This document shows, piece after piece, positions 1-32,765 of a stretch of 64,000 nt of DNA. The DNA lies in the NCBI GenBank assembly GCA_028821145.1, contig JAPPHC010000014.1:19842-83841 (forward strand), in the 5' to 3' direction. Position numbers and translations under genes: made by a program. Under the pieces are notes generated by a model, which was given only the letters and a program-made list of their open reading frames with translations, had not been told where the DNA came from and did not search any database. Source of the DNA: Gammaproteobacteria bacterium (GTDB lineage Bacteria > Pseudomonadota > Gammaproteobacteria > Steroidobacterales > Foliamicaceae). The stretch's first letter is position 1. Each line of letters begins with the position of its first letter.

Positions 1-1444
1 CACTCCCGCCGCGCCGCAGACCGCCGAAGGAGTAAAGCAGCATGGCGGTGGCAAGACGGGTGCCCGGCAGCTTGCCCGACTCTGTCGTCACCTCCCTCGC
101 GCGCCGTTCATCGATGCGGCGAGTTCGCGAGTTCGCACCCACGAAGTCATGCTCCAGACAGGCTTGGAAGTCCTCCCGCTGGCCCACTTCCTTGAAGAAT
201 GCAAGCCGGACATCGCTCTCGTGAATGGGTACGTCGCCCGGCCCGAGAAGAAGGCGTGACACGCCTGCCTGGTGTGCCGCGCGCAAACACGATGCAAGAA
301 AACGTAGCGCGCCGCGGGTGCGTTGAAAGTCCGGTATGGCCGCCCAGCGTTCGCGCATCACATCAATCAGGGCCGGATGAAAGGGATAGGACGCCTGAAT
401 CCGTTCGCGCAACGCCAGACCGTCTTCCTCCGCCCGCTGGCTCTCCGCATCGGTCTGGGCATGCGCACGGCGCATCTGCGTAAACACATGTCCGTAGGCC
501 TCCGCAGTAGCGGTCGCGGCATGAGTATCGGGCACACCGGCGAGCAGTCTTCGTTGGATAACGTTCAGGATTTCGTTTCCCTCGACAGGCTCGCGGCGCT
601 GGTCTTTGCGTGCCGCCAGATGCTCAACGGTTTGCAGGAGATTCGTGTATTCGAGAGATTCGCGCTTGCTCGATTGTAGCGAATAGACCAGCACGGCGTT
701 GTCCACACTCCCGACGGCCGCAGTCAATCGCTGGAGGAAGGACAGCGTTTCGTCGCGGAGCGTAGTCTGCTCGATTCGAATACCGCCGGCGCTGATAAGG
801 TATTGCAGCAGTTCATCAACCAAAATCAGGCTCGGTCCGCCCTTGAGCAACTCGATCAGTGCGTCCGCGCCAGGTGCGACCCGCGCCTCGTCCTGGGCGC
901 GCACCAGTTCGTAGCCTCCCCGACCGCCTAGCGACCACGCGATCCAACCCCAAACTGTCCTGGCGGAAGTATCGTCTCCCGGCATCGGTTTGCCGTTGGT
1001 AGGATCGAAAAACTGTCCATCCACCACTGCGACTCGCACACCTTCCGGTCGCGGGAGTCCGGTTGCTTCCGGCAGGGTGTCGAGCGCGGCGCGGGACCGC
1101 GCGGTATGAAGCAAAGCCGCCAGCGTGTGCGACTTACCCCCGCCGAACGGTGTCTGTAGTCGTAGTACACGGTTGCCGTCCGACCCGGACAAGCGACCCA
1201 GTACATCCTTGAGTAAAGATCGGAGACCGGTTGTCAAATAAGACGCGGCAAAGAAACTATCGGCGTTCCGATAAACAGCCGGTACGCGCCGCAACTCTGT
1301 GTCCGGTTGTCCCAGTTCTTTGCCGATCAGGTAATCGGACAAGGTGCCGAGATCGAGTGCGAAAATGTCCTCGGAAAAGTCGTCGGAAAGCACATCGGGA
1401 TGCAGCTCCACACACTGAAGCCAGGGCTGTGAATTGGGTTTCAT
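1..1444 (-). CDS. DUF499-family AAA ATPase (COG1483-like), partial: C-terminus beyond the left edge; not in the supplied ORF track
   Basis: Reverse translation from ATG at 1444-1442 stays open to base 1: MKPNSQPWLQCVELHPDVLSDDFSEDIFALDLGTLSDYLIGKELG...SFFAASYLTTGLRSLLKDVLGRLSGSDGNRVLRLQTPFGGGKSHTLAALLHTARSR...LILVDELLQYLISAGG. The Walker A 'TPFGGGKSHT' context is typical of DUF499. ATGA overlap with the upstream methyltransferase stop. Confidence 0.88.
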   Translation of the reverse strand, partial: MKPNSQPWLQCVELHPDVLSDDFSEDIFALDLGTLSDYLIGKELGQPDTELRRVPAVYRNADSFFAASYLTTGLRSLLKDVLGRLSGSDGNRVLRLQTPFGGGKSHTLAALLHTARSRAALDTLPEATGLPRPEGVRVAVVDGQFFDPTNGKPMPGDDTSARTVWGWIAWSLGGRGGYELVRAQDEARVAPGADALIELLKGGPSLILVDELLQYLISAGGIRIEQTTLRDETLSFLQRLTAAVGSVDNAVLVYSLQSSKRESLEYTNLLQTVEHLAARKDQRREPVEGNEILNVIQRRLLAGVPDTHAATATAEAYGHVFTQMRRAHAQTDAESQRAEEDGLALRERIQASYPFHPALIDVMRERWAAIPDFQRTRGALRFLASCLRAAHQAGVSRLLLGPGDVPIHESDVRLAFFKEVGQREDFQACLEHDFVGANSRTRRIDERRAREVTTESGKLPGTRLATAMLLYSFGGLRRGGS

Positions 1445-4242
1445 TGAAGTTCTTCTCCACCAAACAGGTCCCCGGTTCCGCCCACCAACGCTTCGATTTC
1501 CTGCGCATAGGCTGCTCCCTCGACCACGCTGCGCCAGTTGGCGTTCAATCGCTGCATCGCACCGAGCTCCGGCGTTGCGGTTCTCTCCGGCGCCTGCGAA
1601 CCGCCAAGAACCGGCGCGCAGAGCGCTTGCGTCACCAACCTGAGTTGTTCGGTGTTTGGCCGAGCCGACTTGAGATACGCCGGAAGGGCTCCAGGTTGCT
1701 CTTCCAGGAGATATAGCAGCCGGTGCAATACGTCGACCAGCGGTGCCGCCTTGCCGTTCTCTGCAAGACCGAGTTCTTCATGGTCGCCACGCTCAGCGAA
1801 ATTGCGTACTCGAAACTTGCCGCCGGACTTTTCAACGAGCTTTGGCGCGTTGCCCGTCAATCCATCCGGGCCGTCGATCTCAATGCCCTGCGGGTAACAG
1901 AAGACGTAGGCGTCACCGGCCTCTATAGAGGACTCGCGGTAGGTGAAACGCCAAAGGATGTAAAACCGGGAGATCGAGTCCACGCTGGCGACTGCCGAAC
2001 CTCGTAGCCCGAATATCTCGTCGAGCATCACGTCGAGCACCACGCCTTCGACTTCGCGCAGGTATCTTTCGGCGGATACCGGGTCGCCGTTGGCATATTC
2101 GACCCGGGAGAACTGGGTATAGGCGCGTAGTCCTGCGCCCACTGCCGCCATCAACAGGTCCGCGCCCCCGATTCCCTTTCCGCCATTCCACAGCGTCTTG
2201 ACCCGCTCACGCGCAATCCGCTGGAGTTGCGGCGCGACCTCCGTTTCGTATTGACCCGCGCCGGTCTGCTCGCGCCGGCGGGCAACGAAAAAAATGCTGT
2301 CGGAAAGTGCAGCGGCATCCATTGCGTTCGTCCGCCCGCGCGCCTCTGTCTGTACCGGCCATGCTTCAGTAACCGTCATGCCTGCCCCGACGAGCGCACG
2401 AATCAGAGTCGCCCAGCCCTCGGTTGTGCGATGAGCATAGACGCAGACCAATGGAGCCCCGGGCTTCAGCACCCGGCGCGCCTCAGCAAGCGAGTTGCGC
2501 ATCAGTCTCTCGTAGTGCGCCTTGGCCTTGTTGGCGTCACCACCGTGCTCACTCGGCTGAGCTACGGCTTCTCGCCGTTTCGGTGGCGTATCGAGTGCAA
2601 AGTGTTCCGGATACAGATCGCCGACGATCCGTTTAAGCCAGACGTAGAAGAATGCGGATAAATCCGCATAGAAGATGCTGCTGTAGTACGGAGGATCGGT
2701 AACGACGGCATCGAAAGTCTCGTCGTCGAAGTAGAGCTTTTCGGCATTCCCGCGCGTAACGACACACGGCTGTTTGATTTTGGCGAGTTCCCGGATGCAG
2801 AAGGCCTCACGGTCCAATGCATAAGACAGACAACCTTGTGTCCGTGCCAGTGGATTGATATCGGAGAAGTCGTAGATCATCTTCAGGGCTTGGCGGTCTC
2901 CAATTGCTCCCACCGTTCTCTGGAGATTCGGATACCAGCGTGAAAACTTGTTGAATGAGATCACAAAGCGACCGAACGCCATCGCGAAGAAGGTCTTCAG
3001 TGCCCGAGCGCGATCTTCCGGCATACCGTGGGCGATCATTTCGTCATGCGCGCGCCGAATCTGACCGATCAGCGTGAAAAGGACCAGAAGTTGCCGCGAT
3101 GTGAATAGCTCGCTGTGTTTTTCTACGCCATATGCGGGCAATTGATCTCGGAGCTTGCCCTGTAATTCCGCTTCGGGGCGCGTGAAGCCGAGTTCCTTCT
3201 CAAGCGCCGCCAAGCGTCGTTCGATAGCGTCGGAGTCGGGTCCCAATGCGGCATCCGGTGGAAGATACACCTTGGTCCGCTTTTTCCCCGCCGGCGTCTT
3301 AGGCGGCAAGGCGGCCACAATTGCAGCCAGCGAATCTTTCATCCTCCCGCTGACAGCCATCTCTTTGACGTAATCCGCGGGAGCGGGCGTGTTGCAGGCT
3401 ACGCAGACCGCTTGCCCTGAACCCGTTTGCCCGGTCTGCTGCGCAACCTCACTGGCCAACCTTCCGGAAACGATGTCCCAATACAAGTACTCCCCGTCCT
3501 CGACTCGTGGCACTGCGGCGATGGCGCCTCCTTTTTTCCGAAGCCACGACTGTCGAACCAGCGGTACTGGCGCGGCACAACCGGGGCGTCGACAGGGGAC
3601 CGTGCGCGCCCAGATATAGGCGACCGGGTCTGCTTGGTCTTCCGAAGTCGGATCCCCACTTCCGAAGAGGGCCGTCTGGCGCAAGACCTCCCTAGAGTGT
3701 GGAACATCAATGGCTGGATACAGATCACCAATTTCTTCGCGCATCCGGTCGACGATCAGAGCGCTCCAACGCTGAAAATCGTCCGCAAGGCCGGCGCCAA
3801 AGGACTGCGGGTAGACCAGCGTGCACAACTCGATCATGTGGGCGACAGGGTTGTAGTCCACCGCATGACTCTCGCACCCCAGGCGGGCGGCTTCGAGCGG
3901 AATCGCCCCGCCACCGGCGAATAGATCCAAGACCTTGGGCGTTCGACCTCCGTGTTGCTCCTTGATTGTCTGGCGCGCCTTCGCGACTGTGGCCGGGTCC
4001 GTCTTGTAGGCGGCCAGCTTAGCAACGAATGACGCTGCCTCCTCGCGTTCCGCGCTGGTGCGCGGGGCGGGCGCCAGCGCCGCGTAGATCGCCGCTCTAC
4101 ACGCAGTAATCGGACGCCGGGCCGGCCAGTAGTGCACCAATTCGACATAGCGGCGCGGGTGGAGCTTTTCCTTCGACGCGATGGCGTTCAGCACGTCCAA
4201 GGGAAGGTAGTCCTCTATCAGGCGACGATCAGTCTTGTTCAT
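1441..4242 (-). CDS. DUF1156-containing adenine-specific DNA methyltransferase (COG1743-like)
   Basis: From internal start MNKTDRRLIEDYLPLDVLNAIASKEKLHPRRYVELVHYWPARRP (DUF1156-like); motif I VLDLFAGGGAIPLEA; motif IV TDPPYYSSIFYADLS; Cys-rich Zn-ribbon-like segment CRRPGCAAP...CVACNTPAP. The ORF track start at 4380 is too long; ATG at 4242 gives an ATGA overlap with the UvrD stop. Confidence 0.92.
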   Translation of the reverse strand: MNKTDRRLIEDYLPLDVLNAIASKEKLHPRRYVELVHYWPARRPITACRAAIYAALAPAPRTSAEREEAASFVAKLAAYKTDPATVAKARQTIKEQHGGRTPKVLDLFAGGGAIPLEAARLGCESHAVDYNPVAHMIELCTLVYPQSFGAGLADDFQRWSALIVDRMREEIGDLYPAIDVPHSREVLRQTALFGSGDPTSEDQADPVAYIWARTVPCRRPGCAAPVPLVRQSWLRKKGGAIAAVPRVEDGEYLYWDIVSGRLASEVAQQTGQTGSGQAVCVACNTPAPADYVKEMAVSGRMKDSLAAIVAALPPKTPAGKKRTKVYLPPDAALGPDSDAIERRLAALEKELGFTRPEAELQGKLRDQLPAYGVEKHSELFTSRQLLVLFTLIGQIRRAHDEMIAHGMPEDRARALKTFFAMAFGRFVISFNKFSRWYPNLQRTVGAIGDRQALKMIYDFSDINPLARTQGCLSYALDREAFCIRELAKIKQPCVVTRGNAEKLYFDDETFDAVVTDPPYYSSIFYADLSAFFYVWLKRIVGDLYPEHFALDTPPKRREAVAQPSEHGGDANKAKAHYERLMRNSLAEARRVLKPGAPLVCVYAHRTTEGWATLIRALVGAGMTVTEAWPVQTEARGRTNAMDAAALSDSIFFVARRREQTGAGQYETEVAPQLQRIARERVKTLWNGGKGIGGADLLMAAVGAGLRAYTQFSRVEYANGDPVSAERYLREVEGVVLDVMLDEIFGLRGSAVASVDSISRFYILWRFTYRESSIEAGDAYVFCYPQGIEIDGPDGLTGNAPKLVEKSGGKFRVRNFAERGDHEELGLAENGKAAPLVDVLHRLLYLLEEQPGALPAYLKSARPNTEQLRLVTQALCAPVLGGSQAPERTATPELGAMQRLNANWRSVVEGAAYAQEIEALVGGTGDLFGGEELQ

Positions 4243-6170
4243 GCCAGACTCCGGCCCGGACCATCGGACAGCAGACCCATCTCCTCTAGAAACCGCGACG
4301 GCCGCTTTTTCCAACCTCTGTAGGTTTTTGCTCTTGACAGGATCAGGCATCGTTTCGCGCGGGTAATGGCGACAAAACAACCGCGGCGTTCTTCCTCAAG
4401 CGCTGCGCTGCTATTGTCATTCTTCACACTGTGCCAAGAAGGAAGCACTTCCTCCGCAAGGCCCATCAGATACACCCTATCGAACTCCAACCCCTTGGCA
4501 CCATGAATGGTGCCAAGGGAGACGGATCCTGGCTCAGGCACCGGCTGTTTGGAGCGCAATGCCATCTCTTGAAGGAACTGGTCGAGCGACACTGCGCCAT
4601 GGGCCTGACGTATTTCGCGCTCGATCCGGCGCCACGCACTCACGTCATCATTGAAATCGCCATCGGCGCCTTTGCTCTCGAAACATTCAATGACTGTCTT
4701 TACCGTGTCGGGCAGCCTTTTGTCCCCCGAAGCGAAGCGCGCGAGGGTGTCTACGGCCTTACTGGCCGGCTTGGGAGGCGATGCCTTCCGTACAGAATCA
4801 AACCAGACTGTCATCAGCGCCACCTGGCCGGCTTCCGAACGTACTTCCAAATCCTCGAAATCCAGAGCAGCGCCAGTAAAGCTCCGAAACGTTTCGATCA
4901 AGGTCACCATGTTGCGCCGATCAAGCGGTCGGTTGATTTGTTTCAGCCCCGCGACCAGCCAACGCATTTGCGGAGACGCGAAATCGTCTCTGCGTGCGAG
5001 GAGCGCGGTGGGCACATTCAGGCTTGCCAACTCATCCTGAACGGTTTCCAAAAGCGCTCGATTACGCGCCAGAATAGCGGTTTGACCCCGCTCCTCTGCA
5101 TCAAGGGCGGCAACTTCGGTCGCAATGCCCCTAGCCTCACCCGCATCGCTGGGGAACACCAAGCATCGGATTTCGGATTCGTTTGTCTCGGTCTCAGGAC
5201 GTGATTTGGCGGCCTCCGCCGACCGTTTTGACAAGTCACGCCGAACGTTGTAAACAACCAGCCGATTGGCGGCCTCAACAATGCCAGGTGGACAACGGAA
5301 ATTGTCCGTGAGTTGGACGACCTCGCACTCAAAGTCCTTCACCAAGCTGCCGATACGACGGACGTTGGCGCCGTTCCATTCGTATATCGTCTGATCGTCG
5401 TCAGCCACGGCGAATAGTTGGTGGAAGCTGTCGCCGGCCATCCGTCGGAGCAAATCGTACTGGGGGCCGTTCGTATCCTGAAACTCGTCAATCAGCCAGT
5501 ATCGATAGATCGTTCGAAAATGTTCGGCCAACTTCGGATAATTCAAAATTTGGTGGGCCAGAATAATCAACGAGTTAAAATCCAGCGCGTTAGATCGCTT
5601 TAGTTCCTCCTCGTAAAGCCGGTAGGCAAGAGCAATACGCTCGGAAGCTTCGCGCGAGGTATCGTGACGCATTAGATACCTATCCGCCTGCTCGGGGCTG
5701 ATCAGACGTGCCTTCAGTGCGTCGATGCGGGGTAAGAACCGTGTATCGTCATGCTCGAAACCATCAGACCCACGCTGCAATGCGTCTTTCAGCAATGCTT
5801 CTCGATCGGCGGTACGCGAGTAGATTTCGAAATTAGGCTTCATGCCGAGATGTACGCCGTGCTGGCGTAGTAAGCGAGCGCAGAATCCATGGAAAGTATT
5901 GATCTCGGCGCGTTCCTCGCTACCTGGAACAAGGGCGGCAATCCGGGATTTCATTTCATGCGCGGCCTTATTCGTGAAAGTCAGTGCGAGAATGCGGAAG
6001 CGTTCGTTAGGCGAAGCATCCAGCAATCGGGCGACTCGGCAGGTGAGCACGCGCGTCTTGCCGGAACCCGGTCCGGCGAGGACCAGCAGCGGCCCTTCGT
6101 CCCACTCAACAGCCTTGCGCTGGATGTCGGTCAGCTCACCTATCGTGTCTGCGAGTGTCCCGACGATCAT
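4239..6170 (-). CDS. UvrD/Rep-like SF1 helicase (Gabija GajB-like)
   Basis: Walker A LAGPGSGKTRVLTCRVARLL; LTFTNKAAHEMKSRI; IDEFQDTNGPQYDLLRR; DDDQTIYEWNGA; LTDNFRCP; IHGAKGLEFDRVYLMGL; VAITRAKRCLILS. Confidence 0.92.
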   Translation of the reverse strand: MIVGTLADTIGELTDIQRKAVEWDEGPLLVLAGPGSGKTRVLTCRVARLLDASPNERFRILALTFTNKAAHEMKSRIAALVPGSEERAEINTFHGFCARLLRQHGVHLGMKPNFEIYSRTADREALLKDALQRGSDGFEHDDTRFLPRIDALKARLISPEQADRYLMRHDTSREASERIALAYRLYEEELKRSNALDFNSLIILAHQILNYPKLAEHFRTIYRYWLIDEFQDTNGPQYDLLRRMAGDSFHQLFAVADDDQTIYEWNGANVRRIGSLVKDFECEVVQLTDNFRCPPGIVEAANRLVVYNVRRDLSKRSAEAAKSRPETETNESEIRCLVFPSDAGEARGIATEVAALDAEERGQTAILARNRALLETVQDELASLNVPTALLARRDDFASPQMRWLVAGLKQINRPLDRRNMVTLIETFRSFTGAALDFEDLEVRSEAGQVALMTVWFDSVRKASPPKPASKAVDTLARFASGDKRLPDTVKTVIECFESKGADGDFNDDVSAWRRIEREIRQAHGAVSLDQFLQEMALRSKQPVPEPGSVSLGTIHGAKGLEFDRVYLMGLAEEVLPSWHSVKNDNSSAALEEERRGCFVAITRAKRCLILSRAKTYRGWKKRPSRFLEEMGLLSDGPGRSLA

Positions 6171-8083
6171 GGCAGCCCCCTAAGTCGATCAATGGCGTCG
6201 CGGAAGGCCGTCGGCATTCGTGCCGCCAATTCAGAATCGCTTCGAACCCGGGCCGCCAGTACCGCCGCATAATCTGTCTTGCGTTTCCTCAATTTGCGCA
6301 CAAGATCTTCGTTATTGAGGCTCTCGGCGTTCTCGACGCCAATGACCTGAAGCGTTTCGCGCAGTTCTTGACCCAATCCGTCAGCGACGAGTTGCTGCTC
6401 CAGATCGCCGTTGGAGTGGTTACCGCAACGCATTTCAATCTCTGACGCGTCGAATCCCCGATTCTGTATGCGTTGATTAAACCGCCTTCCCTCCGCGTCG
6501 CCATCAAATACCGCAAGCCAAGGTATGTCCATTGCCCTTGCCAGAGCAGCAAAGGTGGCCGGGCTACCGTTATTCTGGGCGTCAATGACCGATACACCAT
6601 GCCGGTCAAGATCGTAGTTCAAGGCATACCCGATGGCATGCACCAGCAGATAGTCGGCCTGACCCTCGACGAGCAGCCATCGTTCCGCAAAGAAGACCTC
6701 CCCCCGCATGCGCCGTGCATAGGTTTCCAGCGCCTGCAGTTCGTCATCGGCTACATGCAGGGAAGATCGATCCCGCAAGTCGCGTAGCGATGGCTCAAGC
6801 TCAGCGCGACGCTCGTCCAAAGCGCAGCGAGTTAGCAGTTCGCGATACGCCGTGTCGTCGAGGACGCCGTGAACAGTGAGCAACTTCGCAACGGGTTCAT
6901 AGGACAGCAGCCCGGCTGTTTTTTCGACGACCGTTTCAAGCCCATCGAAATTCGGGATCGAGACGGAAAAACTCGCAGGTAGCGAGCGAACCTCCGTGCG
7001 GCCAGCGTTGAGACGCACCAGCCGCAGGTCGCGAAAGGGCACCTGCTGAACGAAATACGGGGAATGTGTGGTGACGATTTTCTGACCGGGTAATGCGTCG
7101 ATCTGGTGCCACAGCGTGCGAACGGCCTGCGGATGCAGATGCGTCTCAGGCTCCTCAAGCGCTAGCATAGGCTCGCTTCCCGCTTCGTACAACTCGCGCA
7201 GCAGATGGTCGACGAATGCTTGGAAAAGGAAAATGACCGCCAGGCTTTGCAAACCTTGGCCTTGTCGTCGTAGCGGAAGCCAAGGCAAGCCAGCCTCGTT
7301 GCGCAGGATAATCTCAGCTCTGGATAGCAGATCCCAGGTTTTAAGTGGCACCATCCTCAGGTCAAGTCCGCCTTCTTTATCCCGTGCCGCAACCCGTGTT
7401 GCGCCTGAAAGGGTATTGGCGATGTCCGCCAATCGCGGATCGGCTTTAAGGAGCCTGCGATTAAGTAGGTCGAGGACTCGCATCGCACGCGATTCGAGTT
7501 CTGGAGGGATGTTCAGATCCTTTAGGAGACGGTTCCAGAATTGGGATGATCGCGCGGAAAATTCGTCCTTCACGTCACGTAAAGCGTCAAGATAAAACAC
7601 CGGAATATATCGCCAGAAGCGTTCAAGATTGACTCGGCGCGCGCCGATGCCTACGAGCGGCTCACGGCCCACGTCCAGAAACTCCCAGCTCGGTTCAAAG
7701 CTGTCGGTGTCGGCATTCCATACGCATCGCGTTCTCAGGCGGACGGACCGAAGGCCAGTCACCAAGTCCAACTGCACGATGTCGCCGAGGTCTTCCACGA
7801 TAGCGTCGGGCCATTCGCGGGATTCCCGTTCTTCGGACCGGAGTTCGATCGTCACGCCGCTCGATGATTTGGGATCTTCCGCTTCATTCGACATGTGGAT
7901 GTCATATTCGCTAAAGCCGGTTCCGCGCTGGCCCCAACGTCGCGTGAGGGCGATTCTTATCGCGTCGAGAATGGCAGTCTTGCCCGAATTGTTCGGACCG
8001 ACGAGTACCGTGGTCTTGCCAAGATCCATGGCCAGATGCCGTATGGACCGGAAGTTCTCAATCTCGACACGAGTTATGCGCAT
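6167..8083 (-). CDS. OLD-family ATPase with C-terminal TOPRIM domain (Gabija GajA-like)
   Basis: N-terminal MRITRVEIENFRSIRHLAMDLGKTTVLVGPNNSGKTAILDAI; ALEEPETHLHPQAVRTLW; TTHSPYFVQQ; TOPRIM-like LLVEGQADYLLV ... LAVFDGDAEG. ATGA overlap with the downstream UvrD gene. Confidence 0.9.
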   Translation of the reverse strand: MRITRVEIENFRSIRHLAMDLGKTTVLVGPNNSGKTAILDAIRIALTRRWGQRGTGFSEYDIHMSNEAEDPKSSSGVTIELRSEERESREWPDAIVEDLGDIVQLDLVTGLRSVRLRTRCVWNADTDSFEPSWEFLDVGREPLVGIGARRVNLERFWRYIPVFYLDALRDVKDEFSARSSQFWNRLLKDLNIPPELESRAMRVLDLLNRRLLKADPRLADIANTLSGATRVAARDKEGGLDLRMVPLKTWDLLSRAEIILRNEAGLPWLPLRRQGQGLQSLAVIFLFQAFVDHLLRELYEAGSEPMLALEEPETHLHPQAVRTLWHQIDALPGQKIVTTHSPYFVQQVPFRDLRLVRLNAGRTEVRSLPASFSVSIPNFDGLETVVEKTAGLLSYEPVAKLLTVHGVLDDTAYRELLTRCALDERRAELEPSLRDLRDRSSLHVADDELQALETYARRMRGEVFFAERWLLVEGQADYLLVHAIGYALNYDLDRHGVSVIDAQNNGSPATFAALARAMDIPWLAVFDGDAEGRRFNQRIQNRGFDASEIEMRCGNHSNGDLEQQLVADGLGQELRETLQVIGVENAESLNNEDLVRKLRKRKTDYAAVLAARVRSDSELAARMPTAFRDAIDRLRGLP

Positions 8084-8126
8084 GTAGAAAACATCTCGTG
8101 AAGTGCGTGTGTGCTGGTCATTTTTT

Positions 8127-11663
<3,537 letters not shown>

Positions 11664-11766
11664 TCTCGCGATCACCGTTCTTTGAAGTGATTGCGGGGCC
11701 CGCAATGCGCATGATCTGATCGACCCTGTCGGTTCGCGGCGCGAAGGGGTTCATGAGACAACGCCG

Positions 11767-12789
11767 TCATGCCGCAGCTCCGTTGGCTCTCGCCTCGATC
11801 TCGGCGCACCGCTCCATCAGCGCATCGAATGGCTCATTCTCGTCGAGCAGCATGCCGTCGGCCTGCATTCTCGCGTAATCGTCCGCGAGCACCGCCTGCG
11901 CAGTCCCGGCGGGAATGAGCTGCAAGGCACCGGACACTGCCGCCTCATAGTCGATTCGCTGGCCGCTGGCATCGTTCTCGGAGAAGAACATGGCCTTGTG
12001 ACGGGCGACGGAGAGGGCGAGTTCACGGTCAGCGAGTGCGCTCGCGGCAATCCCAGCCTCGTCGAGCCGCGCGAGATCGTGCCAGTGCCGTGAAAGACGC
12101 TCGCCGCGCCGCCGTTCTTGGTGGCAATAGACGTGAATGGCGGTCGCCTTTTCCCAGAAAGTTCGCTCCGCTAGCATGACGGACGGGTGCGCCTCCGGAA
12201 AAACAAGATCGGACAGATGGGGCGCGGCGTCACACACGACTGGCATACTGGTATGCGGCTCGCCTGTCGAACGCGCGCCGAACTCCAACTTGACCTCTGG
12301 GCGCACGAAGTCCGTCTCCTCGAACAGTGGCTCGTAATCAATGAAGATTCGGTCTCCGTCCGCTCGAACCCGCGCAACGAAACCCGCACGAGCTAGCGCC
12401 TCCCGAACGATTGGCAAGGCTTCACCGCGGACCCATTCGACAAGTCGGGCGCGGATCGCGCGTGTCCAGCGCTTTTGTTGGCTGCGTGTGGGAGGTAGCG
12501 CTTCGTCGCCGGAGCCGGCCACAAGATCCGGTGCAAAAGCACGGATGTCGTAGGTAATGTCGACATCTTCGGAGAAGCGGCGGATTGCGCGCCAAACCTT
12601 GGACAGCGACGTGCCGCCCTTGAAGGTCAGATGTTCGGCAAACGGCGCGTCGAACAGCAGATTGAGCGCCGCCACGACCCAGATGTCCTTCTCCAGCAGA
12701 TGCGCTTTGTGAACGCTGGCGCGTTCCACGACCTCCAGAGCATCGCGACGTTCGGCGTTCGACAGATCCTGGTAGCGCGCTTCAGCCAT
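11767..12789 (-). CDS. abiEii: AbiEii/AbiGii-type nucleotidyltransferase toxin
   Basis: MAEARYQDLSNAERRDALEVVERASVHKAHLLEKDIWVVAALNLLFDAPFAEHLTFKGGTSLSKVWRAIRRFSEDVDITYDI: nucleotidyltransferase-like GGTSLSK..RRFSEDVDI. ATG at 12789 overlaps the upstream gene stop by 8 bp. Confidence 0.88.
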   Translation of the reverse strand: MAEARYQDLSNAERRDALEVVERASVHKAHLLEKDIWVVAALNLLFDAPFAEHLTFKGGTSLSKVWRAIRRFSEDVDITYDIRAFAPDLVAGSGDEALPPTRSQQKRWTRAIRARLVEWVRGEALPIVREALARAGFVARVRADGDRIFIDYEPLFEETDFVRPEVKLEFGARSTGEPHTSMPVVCDAAPHLSDLVFPEAHPSVMLAERTFWEKATAIHVYCHQERRRGERLSRHWHDLARLDEAGIAASALADRELALSVARHKAMFFSENDASGQRIDYEAAVSGALQLIPAGTAQAVLADDYARMQADGMLLDENEPFDALMERCAEIEARANGAAA

Positions 12790-13378
12790 GCGGCAGTCGC
12801 GCACTCACGGGTTCGGCCATCCAGTTCGGCATCAACGCCCGGGCAGTGGAGAGTTCGTTCAGCTCTTCAGCGGAGAGCGTCGGCAGAACCGCTTCCAGAC
12901 CATTTTCGACTTCTTCGGGACCAAGCCAGGCCAGAGCGCGGATGACATTCCCCGCCCTGCGGTGCGGTGCCGCCAGTTGCCAGCGCGGGGCGTGGCGCAG
13001 TTCGACCGTGTGTGCCCCGAAATGCAGCCGGCGGCTGGGGCCGGAAGTGAGATAGACCATCCGAACGGGATTCTGGGCGGTCAGTCCAAGGCGGTTGGCT
13101 GCGGACCCGCCGCAAGGAACGATCGTCTCGCCCCATAGCGCGGAAAGCGCGGCGAGCGCCTTGCCGATCCTAGGTCCGCGGACACCGAAACGGGTCTCGA
13201 CGGGGCGCATATACACCCCCTTGCAGATGCGCATGAGCTTGCCGGAACGAGCGAGGCGCGACAGCGCCTGGTCTATGGCCGCACGGTTTCCGAGGTGAAG
13301 CAGCGCACCGGGACACAGCGGCGTGGCCTCCGGGAGGCTTTCGGCATACTCCATGATGCGCTGTGGGAGGCTGCTCAT
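12782..13378 (-). CDS. abiEi: AbiEi-type antitoxin / DUF6088-like transcriptional regulator
   Basis: MSSLPQRIMEYAESLPEATPLCPGALLHLGNRAAIDQALSRLARSGKLMRICKGVYMRPVETRFGVRGP; N-terminal winged-helix and 'GVY' hallmark; directly upstream of, and overlapping, the AbiEii gene. Confidence 0.85.
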   Translation of the reverse strand: MSSLPQRIMEYAESLPEATPLCPGALLHLGNRAAIDQALSRLARSGKLMRICKGVYMRPVETRFGVRGPRIGKALAALSALWGETIVPCGGSAANRLGLTAQNPVRMVYLTSGPSRRLHFGAHTVELRHAPRWQLAAPHRRAGNVIRALAWLGPEEVENGLEAVLPTLSAEELNELSTARALMPNWMAEPVSARLPHG

Positions 13379-13517: not shown

Positions 13518-13919
13518 TCAAGAGCGCGGTTTCGGTTGTTTTGCGGCCTGATCGCGGATCGAAGCTTGGACTTCGCTAGCTGCTTTGGCGATTCTCTCAA
13601 GCTCTTCCTGCCTCCCGTCGCGGATCATTTCGTCGCGCCGGAGCGTCGCGAGCAGGTATACGCCGCGAAAAACTCGCTCGATTTGGCCGGCGAGGTCGGC
13701 GGGAAAAGGCTCGGAAACCGGAGCAAGCTTGCCGATGGAGAGTTCCACTGCGGCATGTCGCACAAACTCGGCGGGCGCCATTCGACGCGCCGCGGCTTCC
13801 TTTTCGATGCCTGCCCACTCGGAATCGGAGAATCGGACGGAGTGCGGCGCGCGCGGTACGGGCCGGTGTTCTGCGGATTTTTGGCCGGGTCCCGCCATGG
13901 CCGTGTCATTTTGGTTCAT
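13518..13919 (-). CDS. Small basic protein resembling MobC/TraJ-type relaxosome accessory proteins
   Basis: MNQNDTAMAGPGQKSAEHRPVPRAPHSVRFSDSEWAGIEKEAAARRMAPAEFVRHAAVELSIGKL: ribbon-helix-helix-like 'VRFSDSEWAGIEKEAAARRMAPAEFVRHAAV'. Start uncertain (ORF track opens at 13967). Confidence 0.5.
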   Translation of the reverse strand: MNQNDTAMAGPGQKSAEHRPVPRAPHSVRFSDSEWAGIEKEAAARRMAPAEFVRHAAVELSIGKLAPVSEPFPADLAGQIERVFRGVYLLATLRRDEMIRDGRQEELERIAKAASEVQASIRDQAAKQPKPRS

Positions 13920-14012
13920 TAATTGGTTTCCAAGTCGCCTTGATCGCAGGGTCGAGTGCCACGCCATCTACAGGGCCGAAAGCCGATTACTGTCGCCCCG
14001 GCGCTTGCTTTC

Positions 14013-14130
14013 GCGTATGCCCTCAGCATACGCATAGGATCGCCCCTTGACGGTGGCGTATGCTCTTCAGCATACGCCACTCCGCAAGCCCGCGGAATAC
14101 CGGAACATCCGGGCGTATGCTCCAGAGCAT
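14013..14130. repeat. Cluster of related palindromes with core GCGTATGC(T)/(A)GCATACGC (two perfect, one degenerate)
   Basis: GCGTATGC-CCTCA-GCATACGC (14013-14033); GTGGCGTATGCT-CTTC-AGCATACGCCAC (14053-14080, 12-bp perfect arms); GCGTATGCTC-CA-GAGCAT (14114-14130, degenerate). Confidence 0.85.
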
Positions 14131-14188
14131 CCACTCTTCCCGGCAAGAACCAGGCGCCTTATGTCGTTGAAAACACAAGAGAAGCAGG

Positions 14189-14204
14189 CCAGGCGCGCGC
14201 CTGG
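14189..14204. repeat. 16-bp perfect palindrome CCAGGCGCGCGCCTGG
   Basis: Sequence equals its own reverse complement; lies in the same largely non-coding interval as the palindrome cluster. Confidence 0.8.
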
Positions 14205-14619
14205 TGTTGAGGGCATCGGAGATGCGTGGGGTGTGTCGGTGCCACCGCTCCGCGGTCAAGATGGCTCTGGATTCGAAGAGAAGCGATGGAGAAAATCGCC
14301 GCCGGAGAACCCGGCGGGTAGCAGCCGCCGCGGCGATTGAGCGGGCGGCAGTTGCGGACATTGATGCGGACGGTGGTGCTCGGCGTGATGCGGAGACATC
14401 CGCGGAAGCGCCAGCACTTCGGTCCGCACTATTGCGGGCAGGTGTGCAAGACGTGCTGCGCACGGTTGCGGTCACAGTCCGGGACACTCGTGCGTGAATG
14501 AGTGTGCGAGCCGGTGCATGTCGCAGGGAGCAGCGGCGAAGCGCAGCGTGACTGCATCGACGGCGGCCGGAGTGAAGCGGGCCGCGCCGAAGTGACGCGG
14601 CCCGCTGTCGTGTTGCGGT

Positions 14620-15543
14620 TCACGCGGCCTTCATGACCGGTATGCCCATCGACGCGGCCTTGTCGACGAGGTTGCCGGTGATGCCGCTGCCGGGGAAGGC
14701 GATGACGCCTTTCGGTAGGAGGTTCAGCAGTTCGTCGTTGCGGCGGAACGGCGCGGCGCGTCCATGCCGCTGCCAGTCGGGCTTGCACACGATCTGATGC
14801 ACGCCGTTCTGTTCGGCCCACTGCGCGGCGAACCGTTCCACACCTGGGCCACCTCCATGCACGAGGACCATGTCGGCGTACTTGGCGCGGACCTTCTCCA
14901 GGCTGCGGTAGACGGCGTCCGGGTCGCTGACGTCCTTGCCTCCGGTGATGGCGACGAGTGTGCCGTCGGGCAGGTGTGCCTTGGTCTCGCGGTCCTTGCG
15001 CGCCCGGAGGAAGTCGCGGGCGTCGATCGCCGCGGAGGTCAGCTTGCGTGTCTGGCTGGCGTGGCTGCCGCTTCTCGGACGCCAAGTGTCGCCGGTGGCG
15101 GCGCGGTAGGCGTCGGCGGCGCTGTCGCGCAGTTGCTCGAAGGCGTCGCGCCGGTCGCCAAGGTTCCGCGCGCGGTCCGTAGTCAGTTCGAGTTCGCGCG
15201 CCTTGATCTCTGAGCCGTCCTGCGAGGATTGCAGTTCGCGCAGTTGCGGTGATAGGCGGTCCACGGCCCGGTCGAGTCTTCTCACCTGGGCGTGGAAGGC
15301 GTTGACGATGCCCCACAGCAGATGCTCGCGTTCGTCGGCGAGTTGGAAACCATCGGACGTTACATCCTCTGCAAGAGTGCGGAACGCTTCGCTGACGGCG
15401 GTGATCGCGCCGTCGCGGTCGAAAATCTCGCGAGGATCAAACTCCCCGCGTTCGGGAGTTGCGCCGTAGAGCGCGGCGTTCTCGCAGATCATGGCGGTCG
15501 TGGACTGTGACTGTTGAGTGTTAATGGTGTCGATATCGAACAT
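14620..15543 (-). CDS. SLOG-superfamily (DUF2493/YspA-like) domain protein, mobile-element type
   Basis: C-terminal domain VAITGGKDVSDPDAVYRSLEKVRAKYADMVLVHGGGPGVERFAAQWAEQNGVHQIVCKPDWQRHGRAAPFRRNDELLNLLPKGVIAFPGSGITGNLVDKAASMGIPVMKAA; helical N-terminus. Confidence 0.8.
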   Translation of the reverse strand: MFDIDTINTQQSQSTTAMICENAALYGATPERGEFDPREIFDRDGAITAVSEAFRTLAEDVTSDGFQLADEREHLLWGIVNAFHAQVRRLDRAVDRLSPQLRELQSSQDGSEIKARELELTTDRARNLGDRRDAFEQLRDSAADAYRAATGDTWRPRSGSHASQTRKLTSAAIDARDFLRARKDRETKAHLPDGTLVAITGGKDVSDPDAVYRSLEKVRAKYADMVLVHGGGPGVERFAAQWAEQNGVHQIVCKPDWQRHGRAAPFRRNDELLNLLPKGVIAFPGSGITGNLVDKAASMGIPVMKAA

Positions 15544-15849
15544 TGGGGTGTCTCCAGTTATGACGTTGGTAGTGAAGCCGGTGGGCTTTTATCGCCGGAA
15601 GCTCTGGCCGGCTTGTGCCTATTGGTTCACGCGCGCGCAGGGGTGTCACCGCGAAGCGGCCGCAACGAAGTGGAGGACCCCGCAGGGGTTGACGCCGTGA
15701 GCACGTGGGAAACGATGGGCACGAGACGGAAAGAGCTACTTATGGGGCTGGGCACACCCTCGTCTGCGCGATTACACCGGGCTGCCCTCTCACGCCAGCA
15801 CTCGGATGGTGCGCGGACCTGGGATGAAGGACTCGAGATCGGCTGCAAA

Positions 15850-15885
15850 CGAATAGGGCGAGTGCGGAAGCACTCGCCCTATTCG
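15850..15885 (-). terminator. Perfect 16-bp stem / GGAA tetraloop hairpin downstream of ssb (terminator or RNA-processing element)
   Basis: CGAATAGGGCGAGTGC-GGAA-GCACTCGCCCTATTCG; about 20 bp after the ssb stop (15906, - strand). No strong U-tract, so the terminator role is uncertain. Confidence 0.5.
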
Positions 15886-15905
15886 GGGACGGAAGAGGCG
15901 CAGAC

Positions 15906-16361
15906 TCAAAACGGGATCTGATCGCCCTGCCCTTCGGCCTGGGAGGCGTCCGCGGGCGTCGCCGAACCATTGGCCGGTTCGCCGGCTTCCGGTGCTGCGC
16001 CGTTGCCGTTCGGCCGGTCCAGGAACTGCACCCGCGAGCCGGGGGCCAGCAGGATCTCGGTCGAGAACCGGTCGGAGTCCTCGCCCTCCTTGCGCCAGCG
16101 CCGCGTTTGCAGCTTGCCCGCGACGTAGACCAGGCGGCCCTTCCGTGCGTTCTTGACCAGCATGTCGACCAGCCCGGGCTGGAACGTGACGGCCCGGTGC
16201 CACTCGGTCTTGTCGACGCGCTCGCCGCTCGTCTTGTCGATGTACGACTCGTCGGTGGCGATGCTCAGGTTGGCCACGCGGCCCCCCGAAGCCAGGTGGT
16301 TGACCGTGACGTCGGCGCCGAGGCGGCCGATGACTTCTGCCCTGTTCAATCCGAAACTCAT
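15906..16361 (-). CDS. ssb: Single-stranded DNA-binding protein
   Basis: MSFGLNRAEVIGRLGADVTVNHLASGGRVANLSIATDESYIDKTSGERVDKTEWHRAVTF...GRLVYVAGKLQTRRW; acidic C-terminal tip QGDQIPF. Confidence 0.93.
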   Translation of the reverse strand: MSFGLNRAEVIGRLGADVTVNHLASGGRVANLSIATDESYIDKTSGERVDKTEWHRAVTFQPGLVDMLVKNARKGRLVYVAGKLQTRRWRKEGEDSDRFSTEILLAPGSRVQFLDRPNGNGAAPEAGEPANGSATPADASQAEGQGDQIPF

Positions 16362-22360: not shown

Positions 22361-25300
22361 TTGCTCAAAGACTCCGCTCTCGACAGGCGGCTTTGGAGCA
22401 ATCACTTGGCAGAAGAACGCATAACCAGTCCCAAGGCGTCGGGTGGCGCCGGTGCCGTGTTCGAACAACATGTCGGTGCCTATTGGCTTGGGCATCTGGT
22501 CGCTGGCGCGATTCCGCCAATCTGGATCGACGCGACGGTCACGAAAGTCCATTTCCAAACGGAACATCTCGGTTGGTGCACAGACGACCTCCTCGTCGAG
22601 TGTTACGCGGGCAGTGGGCGTACCCGCCGATTGGCTTGCCACGTTCGTAGCAACGTCCGCGTAAGCACGTCGGACGAGCGATTCAAGACCGCGGTCGAGG
22701 ACTTCTGGAGCGACTACAACAGTCCAACACAGTTCTCGTCAACCGATGATCGACTCGTGCTAGTCATTCAGCGAGGCTCTGCAAACTTATTGGAGCACTT
22801 CGCTGGACTGTTGGATTGCGCACGCGTCGCTAGCAGCCACAGCGACTTCCGTCATCGCTTGGAAGAGGAGGGTTTCGTCTCGAATACCGTGCGCAAGTAC
22901 TGGAGCGCGGTCCTCACAATCATCCGCGAGTTGGAATCCGACGAGGAAGAAGATGCTCTCTCCGCTAGGGTCTGGCAATTCCTGCGCGTGGTTCATGTCT
23001 TGAGCCTGGACCTCGCCACGTCCACGCGGCAATGCGAGGCGCAGTTGAAGAGCATGCTCGGTCACTTCGCAGTAGGGGGTAGCCCACTTGAAGTCGCTCA
23101 GGCTAGTTGGGACGCGCTGCTTAGGATAGCCAGCGATTCGGCCCCCAAGGCCGCAAGTCTTGTCCGTGCCGATCTCCCGGTCTCTCTCCTCAACGACCTG
23201 AGCACATTCAGCGTGAAGGATCGGCAGCTCTTGGGAATGTTGGCAGAGCACTCCGACCCGGTGCTTCGCGGGGTCAGAACTGTGTTTGGAGAGGACTTCC
23301 ATCTCGACCGCGGACCTGTAGTGCAGGAGTTGATGAGGCAACTCGAAGCTTTCCAAGTGGTACTGGTCTCGGGGCCCGCCGGAAGCGGCAAATCGGCAAT
23401 CGCCAAAGGCGCCGTGGAATTCCTCTCAGCCGATCACTTCGTGTTCGCGTTTCGCGTCGAGGAGTTCGCGCGCGCGCACATCGATGCTGTGCTTCAGGCG
23501 GCGCAGATTCCATCTCAGGCGGTATCCGTGTTCGCGATGCTGGGTACACAGGACCAGATAGTGATACTTGTCGACGCCACCGAGCGGATACTGGAGCGGA
23601 GCACTCGCGACGCTTTCAGCGACCTCATCTCGCTCGCCGCCGACAACCCAGCGATCCGCGTGATCCTGACGTGTCGGGATTACTCCACTGAACTCGTAAG
23701 GAGCGCTTTGCTGCAAGGCAAGCCGATCAGTTCCACCGTGCTTAGCGTGCCTCCATTGACGGATTCGGAACTCGATGAAGTAGCTGGCACCTATCCAGCA
23801 TTGACGAATCCCCTGTCCAACACGGGGCTGCGGGAAGTGCTTCGGAATCCGTATTTCCTGGACAAGGCCCTCGAACTCTCCTGGTCGGCTGGGGAAGCGC
23901 CGCCGGAAACTGAACGAGAGTTCAGAGACCGGTTCTGGCGCGATGTGATTCGAGCGGATGCGACCGCGCCAGCTGGTATGCCCGCCCGGCGGGAGGCGAC
24001 GTTCATCGGGGTCGCTATCGCGCGAGCACAGGCGCTGTCCACCTTCGTTCGAAGCGCAGAACTGGACCAGGAGGGAGTTGAAGCCCTCAAGCGAGACTCT
24101 CTCCTCGCCTCCCCGGATCAACGACCGGGGCTCGTGTCGACACCTCACGACGTTCTCGAGGACTGGGCGATACTGCGGTGGCTCGACGCAAGGCTTGAAG
24201 CCGCGGAGGGCATGCTCGTTGGGATGGCATCGATCGGAGCGCACCCAGCGATTAGGCGTTCGTATCGGCGTTGGCTCGAGGAACTCCTACAACGGGACCC
24301 TGTAGCCGCGGAGCGGTTGTTCGACGACGCCTTTGCCGATGAGAGCGTGAGCGCGCAGTTCCGCGACGACACGATCACATCCCTGCTTGGGGCGGACAAA
24401 GCGCCGGCATTCTTGGAGTCGCGTGGCCCCCATCTAATGGCGAACAACGCAGCCTTGCTCAAACGTTTGATCCACCTGCTTCGCGTTGCCTGCGTCGGGA
24501 CGCCGAGTTGGTCCTCGGGCGACGCAGCGCTACCCCAGGTGTTTTCGGAGCCGATAGGGCCATCTTGGCCCGTTGTCCTCCGCCTTTTCCAAGAGAACAT
24601 CGAGGTGTTCTCGCCCACCGAACGTTTGTCACTGATTGGCCTGCTGGAGGACGCCACGCGGGGACTTTCTTGGTGGGTACCGACACTTGACGGGGCCGAG
24701 TTCGTGGCCGCTGCCGCGTACCGAATCCTCTCGGATCTCGACGACTACCGCGCGAAGGATTCGAGACGCCGAGTGCTCAAGGTGATCGCAAAGGTACCCA
24801 AAGCGGACTCCACAAGGTTCGAGATCGTGCTGCGGGGCACCGTCGAAGAGCATGGCCGGCTTGATGCGGTCGCCAAGGACTTCCGGCAGATGATCCTCTT
24901 CGGGATGGAGGGCATGCATGTCGCGCGGGACCTTCCCGATTTGTTGGTATCCGTCGCGAAGGATTCACTACTCGCGACGGCTCAAGATGCGAAGCCGTAC
25001 GAGTACTGGGACCTTGATATGGGCCCCCAGTTCGGTCTGAAGTCCCTGCTTGACGACCACTCAGTCCAGACGAGTGCAATTCACGGCCCGTGGCTGCATC
25101 TGCTCCGCTATCACCCGACTAAGGGCTTGGCATTTCTGAGAGATGTCTTCAACCACAGCGCGAACACCTATGCCGAGACTCGTGGTACGCATGCGCTTGA
25201 ACCGGCCGAGAAAATCCAGCTCACGTTTCCTGACGGGAAGGTGAAGACTCATTGGGGCAACCAGCGACTTTGGAACCTATACCGGGGAAGCTCGGTCGGC

Positions 25301-27493: not shown

Positions 27494-27875
27494 CCAGTTT
27501 CAATAGAACCAGTCCACGCTCGCGCGTCAACGGGCGACGTGTGTTGTTGTTGGACCAACGACCGATGCATCCAGAGGTTCGGCCGAGTGTTCAGCCGGTG
27601 CAGGCTACGCAGTCGGCCCAGTGTTGCTTAAGCTGGGGTCGCCGGCGGAGTTGTGCTCGCGGCTGCCCCGCGCGACGGCTCACTTCATATTCGCAGATTT
27701 TGAGTATCAACCCGGCGCCGCTGGTCGCCTCGCACCTCTGGTGTCCTAGTCCTTCCCCCGCCCTCCCTGGTGCTCTGTTCGGCGCACGAGAAGTAAAATC
27801 GACTTGGGTTCGGTCTTAACGCCCTGAGGATACGAATCTGTACAAACTCAATAGGTGACAGGGTTGGAAGATTGG

Positions 27876-31346: not shown

Positions 31347-32600
31347 TTAGCGGCGCAGCGCAACCACTTGGGCGCCATCACCCGTCAGATACGCTGCCCA
31401 GGCATCCATGAGGCACCGCCGGCGCTCGAACAGATCGGAGCGGAAATAGGCTCCCTCCACACCCCCTACGGTATGCGCAAGCGCTGCTTCCGCCACTTCG
31501 CGTGCCTTGCCGGTGTCGGCGCACCAGTCGCGGAAGCTTGACCGAAAGCCGTGCACGGTCGCACGTTCTGCCAAACCCGTGTCGCGGAGCACCTTGGTGA
31601 GCGTCATGTCGGATAGCTCGCGCCCTTGCCGTATGGGAGACGGAAAGATCAGTGCGCTGCCATCGTTGAGCGCCCGGGCGTGGTCCAGCACTTCCAGCGC
31701 AGGCGCGCTCAAGGGGACGCGGTGTTCGACGCCCGCCTTCATACGCTCGCCGGGGATCTTCCACACGTCACTCTGGATCTCCGCCCATGTCGAGCCGCGG
31801 ACCTCGCCGGAGCGGGCGGCCGTGAATATCAGGAACGTTAGCGCCAGCTTAGCTACCGGTGAGGCTCCAGAGGTCTGTACGATTTCCAGCGCTTCGGGGA
31901 TCTCTGCATAAGGCAATGCCCTGAAATGCGCCTTCACGGCTGGCATGCGCGGTAAAGCACCATCGATTGCTTCTCCCGCCGCGTTGAATTGCACAAATCC
32001 GTGCGCCTGGCACCATTTGAGCGTCGCCCGAATATTCTGGCGCACTTTTCGTCCGGTCTCCGGTTTCGTGGTCCAGATGGGCGTCAGCACCGCCAATACA
32101 TGTTCCCGCCCTATCTGATCCACGGGAATTGCGCCTAACCGTGCCATTGCATGACGTTCCAATTTCTGCATCCAGTTGACCGCCACCTTCTCGCTGCGCC
32201 AGCGCGGACGTAGGGCCTCGAATGTGCGCTGGGCGGCCTCGCGAAACGTCGGAACCTTTGGTTGACGCTTGACCGCCAACGGATCGCCCCCGCGCCGTGC
32301 CATTCTGCGATTCGCATACGCAGCATCGCGGGCTTCTGCCAGCGTTACCCAGGAACATCCGCCCAGTCCGATGTCACGGCGTTTACCGTGAATGGTCAAT
32401 CGCTGAACCCACTGCTTGGACCCGCCGGGCGCGACTCTTAAGTACAGCGTATTGCCGTCGCCGTACAGGCCCGGTTGGTTGATTGCCCGGACTTTTTTGA
32501 CCGTCAGTTTTCCTTGCCCCACAAAATATTTCACGCGCTTATCACCCTTTTTATCCAACGCACGGACGCGAAGTGTAGCGTACGGCTGCGCGGGGTGCAA
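31347..32600 (-). CDS. P4-type tyrosine recombinase / integrase (N-terminal DUF4102-like arm-binding domain)
   Basis: KYFVGQGKLTVKKVRAINQPGLYGDGNTLYLRVAPGGSKQWVQRLTIHGKRRDIGLG; catalytic RSGEVRGSTWAEI, HGFRSSFRDWCADTG, ALAHTVGGVEGAYFRSDLFERRR; adjacent to a tRNA gene. Confidence 0.93.
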   Translation of the reverse strand: MHPAQPYATLRVRALDKKGDKRVKYFVGQGKLTVKKVRAINQPGLYGDGNTLYLRVAPGGSKQWVQRLTIHGKRRDIGLGGCSWVTLAEARDAAYANRRMARRGGDPLAVKRQPKVPTFREAAQRTFEALRPRWRSEKVAVNWMQKLERHAMARLGAIPVDQIGREHVLAVLTPIWTTKPETGRKVRQNIRATLKWCQAHGFVQFNAAGEAIDGALPRMPAVKAHFRALPYAEIPEALEIVQTSGASPVAKLALTFLIFTAARSGEVRGSTWAEIQSDVWKIPGERMKAGVEHRVPLSAPALEVLDHARALNDGSALIFPSPIRQGRELSDMTLTKVLRDTGLAERATVHGFRSSFRDWCADTGKAREVAEAALAHTVGGVEGAYFRSDLFERRRCLMDAWAAYLTGDGAQVVALRR

Positions 32601-32688
32601 GTACGGATATCACCGTAAAGCTATTGTTTTATATCGTATTTCTGTCGTCTTGTGGCGTCGTATGGCAGTTAGAGCGAAATGTGGAAGA

Positions 32689-32765
32689 GCGCCCCGACCA
32701 GGATTCGAACCTGGGACCTTCCGCTTAGGAGGCGGACGCTCTATCCAGCTGAGCTACCAGGGCGC
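32689..32765 (-). tRNA. tRNA-Arg (anticodon CCU)
   Basis: GCGCCCTGGTAGCTCAGCTGGATAGAGCGTCCGCCTCCTAAGCGGAAGGTCCCAGGTTCGAATCCTGGTCGGGGCGC folds as a cloverleaf: acceptor GCGCCCT/GGGGCGC, anticodon stem TCCGC/GCGGA with loop CTCCTAA, T-loop GTTCGAATC. 3' CCA not encoded. Confidence 0.95.

What the first reader, a model, noticed from the sequence alone, without database searches (positions are those of the whole stretch)
1..11705. Five-gene operon embedding a Gabija-like pair (OLD-TOPRIM + UvrD) in a DUF499 / DUF1156-methyltransferase / SNF2-DUF3883 system
Seen: SNF2-DUF3883 -> OLD/TOPRIM -> UvrD -> DUF1156 MTase -> DUF499 ATPase on one strand. Three consecutive junctions are ATGA start-stop overlaps (6167-6170, 4239-4242, 1441-1444), so the last four genes look translationally coupled. 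Known: OLD-like GajA plus UvrD-like GajB form Gabija; DUF499 + DUF1156 pairs and SNF2/DUF3883 helicases recur in methylation-based defence loci related in logic to BREX/DISARM. Inference: this may be a composite system in which a Gabija-type nuclease/helicase acts as effector for a DUF1156 methylation module, rather than two systems that happen to be adjacent. This is my leading candidate for an undescribed or under-described system.
Basis: partly seen in the sequence, partly recalled or inferred. Interest (0 to 1): 0.85.

Follow-up and report, generated by a model that had tools for sequence, protein, structure and literature searches.

The report
Gabija cassette nested in Hma operon
A known three-gene bacterial anti-virus system (Hma) carries a second known two-gene anti-virus system (Gabija) slotted between its genes on one mobile DNA island; nesting of this kind is already described, and the sequence evidence favours an exchangeable passenger over one new fused machine.

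Summary
Five intact genes run on one strand with three real ATGA junctions. The three "unknown" genes are the known Hma system (HmaA SNF2-DUF3883 helicase, HmaB DUF1156 methylase, HmaC DUF499 ATPase; also called Type-1 BREX-related). OLD-TOPRIM plus UvrD is a full-length Gabija pair by PADLOC models. The interpretation as one undescribed composite is not supported. The same Gabija subfamily occurs without Hma in five unrelated loci, and Hma occurs without Gabija. Trees reject a single nested clade for GajA (AU p=0.019) and GajB (p=0.0002), although the three nested HmaA proteins form one clade. In 12 other Hma loci the HmaA-HmaB junction holds Septu, an OLD-ATPase plus DUF3226 module, HEPN-type, NYN-like or NADAR genes, an unknown gene, or nothing. 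It is therefore an interchangeable cargo slot. Published work already describes defence genes embedded in Hma ("Hma-embedded candidates", Septu in Hma) and OLD-TOPRIM nucleases embedded in DUF499 loci. What is added: a complete five-gene nested case in two genomes plus a partial third from another phylum, and its vehicle, a 37.5-kb tRNA-Arg island with an empty site in a relative. Most likely function: two co-transcribed, largely independent layers, with Gabija as backup nuclease. This is inferred.

The parts
8127..11663 (-). HmaA: SNF2 helicase with C-terminal DUF3883/NOV_C (PD-(D/E)XK-type motif GFD...IEVKG intact); ORF open to TTG 11705
   Evidence: PADLOC HmaA 609 bits; Pfam; motifs conserved in homologues
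6167..8083 (-). GajA: OLD-family ATPase with TOPRIM nuclease; Walker A GPNNSGKT, TOPRIM VEGQAD and DGD present
   Evidence: PADLOC GajA PDLC00062 819 bits over 637 aa; Pfam OLD-like_TOPRIM
4239..6170 (-). GajB: UvrD/PcrA-like SF1 helicase, 643 aa; starts in ATGA overlap with GajA
   Evidence: PADLOC GajB PDLC00114 726 bits
1441..4242 (-). HmaB: DUF1156 adenine-type DNA methyltransferase (DPPY motif); starts in ATGA overlap with GajB
   Evidence: PADLOC HmaB 355 bits; Pfam DUF1156; junction repeated in L007
1..1444 (-). HmaC: DUF499 AAA+ ATPase, first 481 of 967 aa inside the window; ends at contig 18382 (1.46 kb left of base 1)
   Evidence: HmaC 318 bits for the whole protein
31347..32534 (-). 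Tyrosine integrase of the island that carries the operon
   Evidence: Pfam Arm-DNA-bind_3 + Phage_integrase
32687..32704 (.). Right attachment repeat GAGCGCCCCGACCAGGAT at the 3' end of tRNA-Arg(CCT) 32689-32763; identical copy at contig 15041-15058 (about 4.8 kb left of base 1)
   Evidence: empty site in L025

Best explanation
This is an Hma system (Type-1 BREX-related, DUF499-centred) whose HmaA-HmaB cargo slot holds a Gabija cassette, all on a 37.5-kb island integrated at tRNA-Arg. Shown: gene content, order, ATGA coupling, recurrence, separability of the modules, the slot's variable content, and the mobile vehicle. Inferred: one transcript expresses both layers. HmaB methylates host DNA; HmaC (BrxC-like ATPase) and HmaA (SNF2 helicase with a DUF3883 nuclease-like end) attack DNA lacking the mark. 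GajAB acts largely on its own as a second nuclease layer against linear phage DNA, above all phages that evade the first layer or shield their DNA ends from RecBCD. Nesting gives joint expression and joint transfer; it is not an obligate complex.
For: PADLOC assigns all five proteins to Hma and Gabija. Same five-gene order in L007 and HmaA-GajA-GajB in L006. Same Gabija subfamily without Hma in L004, L005, L008, L011 and L015. Hma without Gabija in L017 and in 11 other loci. Nested GajA and GajB are not one clade (AU p 0.019 and 0.000166), while the three nested HmaA are (100/100). The slot holds Septu in L063, PDC-S06 + PDC-M38 in L066, HEC-08/DUF3644 in L065, DUF4145 in L062, NADAR in L075 and NYN-like in L057/L058. 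Purifying selection on nested GajA/GajB: dN/dS point estimates 0.06-0.21, with dS near or past saturation. Published class: PMC8565338, PMC12839542, PMC12255303, PMC12988326. Gabija trigger: PMC12407980 (preprint).
Against: The nested arrangement has been kept across two phyla (Pseudomonadota, Acidobacteriota) with a conserved GajB-HmaB ATGA overlap, which could mean selection for coordinated dosage or interaction. All three members of this HmaA clade carry Gabija, so no Gabija-free close relative was seen. Only three nested loci are known here, two of them in fragmentary MAGs. No expression or phage data exist.
Confidence: 0.72

Rival explanations
1. True composite: GajAB is the dedicated effector (or amplifier) of the Hma methylation module, for instance fed by DNA ends that HmaA makes on unmethylated phage DNA.
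For: Conserved five-gene order and conserved GajB-HmaB ATGA overlap in the window and L007, with HmaA-GajA-GajB also in L006; all three members of the HmaA clade carry Gabija; Gabija acts on linear DNA that lacks RecBCD (PMC12407980), which restriction could supply.
Against: Same Gabija subfamily stands alone in five loci; nested copies are not one lineage; the slot takes unrelated modules; HmaA has its own intact DUF3883 nuclease-like motif, so no effector is missing.
Confidence: 0.15
2. Chance insertion of Gabija into one Hma operon, without consequence.
For: Gabija is common and mobile; defence genes cluster on islands; the operon lies on a tRNA island with AbiE and Avs4-like genes.
Against: The same junction is used in L007 and L006 in other taxa, with coupled reading frames kept intact, and other defence modules use the same junction elsewhere.
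Confidence: 0.1
3. A wholly new defence system rather than Hma plus Gabija.
For: Scores to NCBIfam equivalogs are below cut-off and HmaB/HmaC scores to PADLOC are moderate (355 and 318 bits).
Against: All Hma and Gabija components are present, in known order, with near full-length profile matches.
Confidence: 0.03

Closest known systems
Hma (helicase-methylase-ATPase; PADLOC, PMC8565338) = Type-1 BREX-related system (PMC12839542)
   Same: Three core genes HmaA, HmaB, HmaC in order, SNF2-DUF3883 helicase, DUF1156 adenine methylase, DUF499 ATPase
   Different: Two Gabija genes lie between HmaA and HmaB; no N-terminal HEPN on HmaC
Gabija (GajA OLD-TOPRIM + GajB UvrD)
   Same: Gene pair, order, coupling, full-length PADLOC profiles, catalytic motifs
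   Different: A subfamily distant from the solved GajAB: GajB is 643 aa and nearer PcrA/UvrD (E 5.6e-72) than solved GajB (1.1e-15); closest solved GajA relative is an OLD-family endonuclease, 6p74
Hma-embedded candidates and Septu in Hma (Payne et al. preprint 10.1101/2024.01.29.577857, read only through PMC12988326, PMC12255303, PMC10855318)
   Same: A second defence module between Hma genes; the slot content seen here (HEC-08, Septu) matches that class
   Different: The cargo here is Gabija; whether that exact cargo is listed could not be checked
OLD-TOPRIM backup effectors in BREX/BR loci (PMC12839542)
   Same: OLD-TOPRIM nuclease inside DUF499 core loci, proposed as backup effector
   Different: The main text does not mention UvrD as part of the embedded unit; supplements not readable here

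Membership tests
Hma / Type-1 BR | HmaA SNF2 helicase, with C-terminal nuclease domain in most members | tested here: met
   609 bits to PDLC00659; NOV_C/DUF3883 with GFD...IEVKG
Hma / Type-1 BR | HmaB DUF1156 adenine methyltransferase | tested here: met
   355 bits; DUF1156 above cut-off; DPPY motif
Hma / Type-1 BR | HmaC DUF499 ATPase | tested here: met
   318 bits to HmaC, DUF499 above cut-off; Walker A/B conserved
Hma / Type-1 BR | DNA methylation and phage protection | not testable with these tools
   needs methylome and plaque assays
Gabija | GajA: OLD ATPase fused to TOPRIM nuclease | tested here: met
   819 bits full length; TOPRIM Pfam above cut-off; VEGQAD and DGD conserved in the near relatives
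Gabija | GajB: UvrD-like helicase encoded next to GajA | tested here: met
   726 bits full length, ATGA junction
Gabija | GajA-GajB complex, nucleotide-sensing nicking activity | not testable with these tools
   AlphaFold models were of low confidence
Type-2 BR / DMS | Stand-alone DUF3780 gene and PLD (HKD) domain at helicase N-terminus | tested here: not met
   no such match in the operon proteins
BREX | PglZ | tested here: not met
   no PglZ among the operon and neighbouring proteins scanned
DISARM | DrmA/B/C with a DrmD helicase | tested here: not met
   HmaA reaches 340 bits against a DrmD cut-off of 610; no DrmB or DrmC among the proteins scanned
One obligate composite system | components always occur together and share one history | tested here: not met
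   both halves found alone; nested GajA/GajB monophyly rejected

The most novel reading that the evidence does not exclude
In this HmaA lineage Gabija is functionally wired to Hma: DNA ends made by Hma on unmethylated phage DNA, or a failed or blocked Hma complex, trigger GajAB, so that the five genes form a two-stage restriction machine.
Probability: 0.13. Interest if true: 0.65.

Novelty: new member of a known kind. Interest (0 to 1): 0.33.

Why it matters
It is a clean natural case for asking why defence systems nest inside one another. The host, the cargo, free-standing relatives of the cargo, Gabija-free Hma relatives and the mobile island are all identified, so additive versus synergistic action can be tested directly. 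The HmaA-HmaB junction as a general cargo slot also helps to find unknown defence genes by their position.

Tried and rejected
Scans for GajA in viral contigs gave nothing, and for HmaA three loci, of which only L017 was informative. Plasmids gave one Gabija pair (L015, two records) and only distant HmaA pieces. AlphaFold models of GajA and GajB from six-row alignments had mean pLDDT 49 and 60 and were not used for fold searches. The key preprint on Hma-embedded candidates is not held, nor is the Halomonas Snf2-nuclease paper PMC11232893. Considered and rejected: BREX, DISARM and Type-2 BR membership (missing PglZ, DrmABC, DUF3780/HKD); AbiE as a sixth part of the system (adjacent, 103 bp from the likely HmaA start, but not adjacent to HmaA in L006 or L007); ATGA overlaps as evidence for a composite (the GajA-GajB one is intrinsic to Gabija).
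Full report
Observation. The window is contig C67 bases 19842-83841 of a 2.2-Mb, 66% complete MAG. Five minus-strand genes run from 11.7 kb to past base 1. PADLOC profiles name them HmaA (609 bits), GajA (819), GajB (726), HmaB (355) and HmaC (264 for the part in the window, 318 for the whole protein). HmaC, cut by the window edge, is intact in the contig: 967 aa, ending at contig 18382. The ATGA overlaps at 6167-6170, 4239-4242 and 1441-1444 are real. HmaA probably starts at ATG 11663 rather than TTG 11705, because homologues align from there.

Are the proteins likely active? Walker A, DEAH and motif VI of HmaA, its C-terminal GFD...IEVKG motif (PD-(D/E)XK type, DUF3883/NOV_C), the Walker and TOPRIM residues of GajA, the helicase motifs of GajB, and the Walker boxes of HmaC are conserved among the near relatives (the two most distant Gabija relatives, L011 and L015, vary at a few positions). 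The DPPY motif of HmaB is present. Pairwise dN/dS between nested loci is 0.06-0.21 for HmaA, GajA, GajB and HmaC, so all four are under purifying selection; dS is near or beyond saturation, so these are rough.

What is it? Helicase + DUF1156 methylase + DUF499 ATPase is the Hma system, described from its frequent proximity to Septu type I (PMC8565338), and reclassified as the Type-1 BREX-related system, the simplest of the DUF499-centred systems, found in 2446 taxa (PMC12839542). That paper also reports OLD-ABC-linked nucleases, most prominently TOPRIM-linked ones, across BREX and BR loci in at least 1242 taxa and proposes them as backup effectors. A published class, Hma-embedded candidates, rests on the preprint 10.1101/2024.01.29.577857, which I could read only through citing papers (PMC12988326, PMC12255303 with "Septu in Hma systems", PMC10855318).

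Is the nesting recurrent? A scan of 84,980 species genomes for close GajA relatives gave five loci. L007 (Gammaproteobacteria MAG) has the same five genes in the same order with the same GajB-HmaB ATGA; its HmaB has a frame break. L006 (Vicinamibacteria MAG, Acidobacteriota) has HmaA-GajA-GajB; after GajB only the first few codons resemble the HmaB start before the sequence diverges. L004, L005 and L008 have GajAB without Hma. A Methylocystis plasmid (L015) and genome G194 (L011) also have GajAB alone.

Do the modules share a history? The three nested HmaA proteins form a 100/100 clade at 81-85% identity. Nested GajA and GajB do not form a clade: the window's GajA groups with stand-alone L004 and L005 (96/96), and holding the nested copies together is rejected for GajA (AU p=0.019) and GajB (p=0.000166). 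The cassette has moved between nested and free states, or been replaced in place. HmaB diverges most (43-45% to L007 against 81% for HmaA and 74% for HmaC), as expected if methylation specificity is the fast-changing part. That last point is inference.

Is the junction special? I searched 398 Pseudomonadota genomes for HmaB; 18 had a match. I fetched the surroundings and, with L017, had 12 loci holding both HmaA and HmaB, none chosen for GajA. None holds Gabija at the junction. It holds Septu PtuA/PtuB (L063), PDC-S06 plus PDC-M38AB, an OLD-type ATPase with a DUF3226 partner (L066), HEC-08/DUF3644 (L065), DUF4145 (L062), NADAR (L075), a NYN-like gene judged by eye (L057, L058), an unassigned gene (L017, L070), or nothing recognisable (L059, L064, L073). 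These loci are not fully independent, since two genera recur. The HmaA-HmaB junction is a cargo slot.

Vehicle. An 18-bp repeat, GAGCGCCCCGACCAGGAT, lies at the 3' end of tRNA-Arg(CCT) (window 32687-32704) and at contig 15041-15058, with a tyrosine integrase at 31347-32534. In same-genus genome G403 (L025) the left flank up to the repeat joins directly to the right flank: an empty site. L021 and L022 also have the tRNA close to the left-flank gene. None of the 8 other same-genus genomes has this GajA. The island of about 37.5 kb also carries AbiEi/AbiEii, an Avs4-like gene and a DUF3644 gene.

How it most likely works. One transcript expresses both modules (inferred from 43-bp or shorter gaps, overlaps, and no internal promoter- or terminator-like site above chance). 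Hma restricts DNA lacking its own methyl mark (inferred from family). Gabija acts on linear DNA that RecBCD cannot occupy, a state caused by phage end-binding proteins (PMC12407980, preprint). Such proteins would also be expected to blunt the clearance of restricted DNA, so the layers would cover each other's gaps. Obligate coupling is not needed to explain any observation here and is contradicted by separability; it stays possible for this lineage (13%).

Verdict. The composite interpretation is not supported beyond recurrent nesting. Novelty is low to moderate: a new member of a known kind.

Noticed in passing
11767-13378 (minus): AbiEi (12782-13378) and AbiEii (11767-12804) pair directly upstream of HmaA on the same strand; not adjacent to HmaA in L006 or L007.
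   Followed up: partly
22457-27493 (plus): 1678-aa STAND NTPase matching Avs4 over residues 258-1673 (426-450 bits, far below the NCBIfam cut-off of 1500): a divergent Avs4-like gene.
   Followed up: partly
L002:16356-18401 (contig, left of the window): Just after HmaC: a Schlafen AlbA_2 / HATPase_c_4 gene broken into different frames, then an intact DUF3644 (HEPN-type, PDC-S19) gene.
   Followed up: partly
contig 15041-52545 (window about -4800 to 32704): A 37.5-kb integrative island at tRNA-Arg(CCT) with 18-bp att repeats and an empty site in same-genus genome G403 (L025).
   Followed up: yes
29397-30650 (plus): PLD-family nuclease resembling the NgoFVII restriction endonuclease N-terminal domain, near two unassigned genes (27855-28667, 28664-29113).
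   Followed up: partly
13518-16361 (minus): NikA-like mobilisation protein (weak), a YAcAr/SLOG protein and a single-strand-binding-protein-like gene: traces of a conjugative or mobilisable element.
   Followed up: partly
L007:13725-16650: HmaB of the second complete locus has a frame break between query residues about 283 and 315; real or an assembly error is unknown.
   Followed up: partly
L006:13884-14320: After GajB a GTGA overlap and about five codons match the HmaB start of L007, then homology ends: HmaB lost or misassembled.
   Followed up: partly
L063, L069, L058, L071, L072: A second cargo position appears to exist between HmaB and HmaC (HEC-02-type ATPase in L063, a similar ATPase in L069 judged by eye, PIN-like gene in L058, unassigned genes in L071/L072).
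   Followed up: no
L007:19746-20711: ThsB-like TIR gene (388 bits) follows HmaC in the second nested locus.
   Followed up: no
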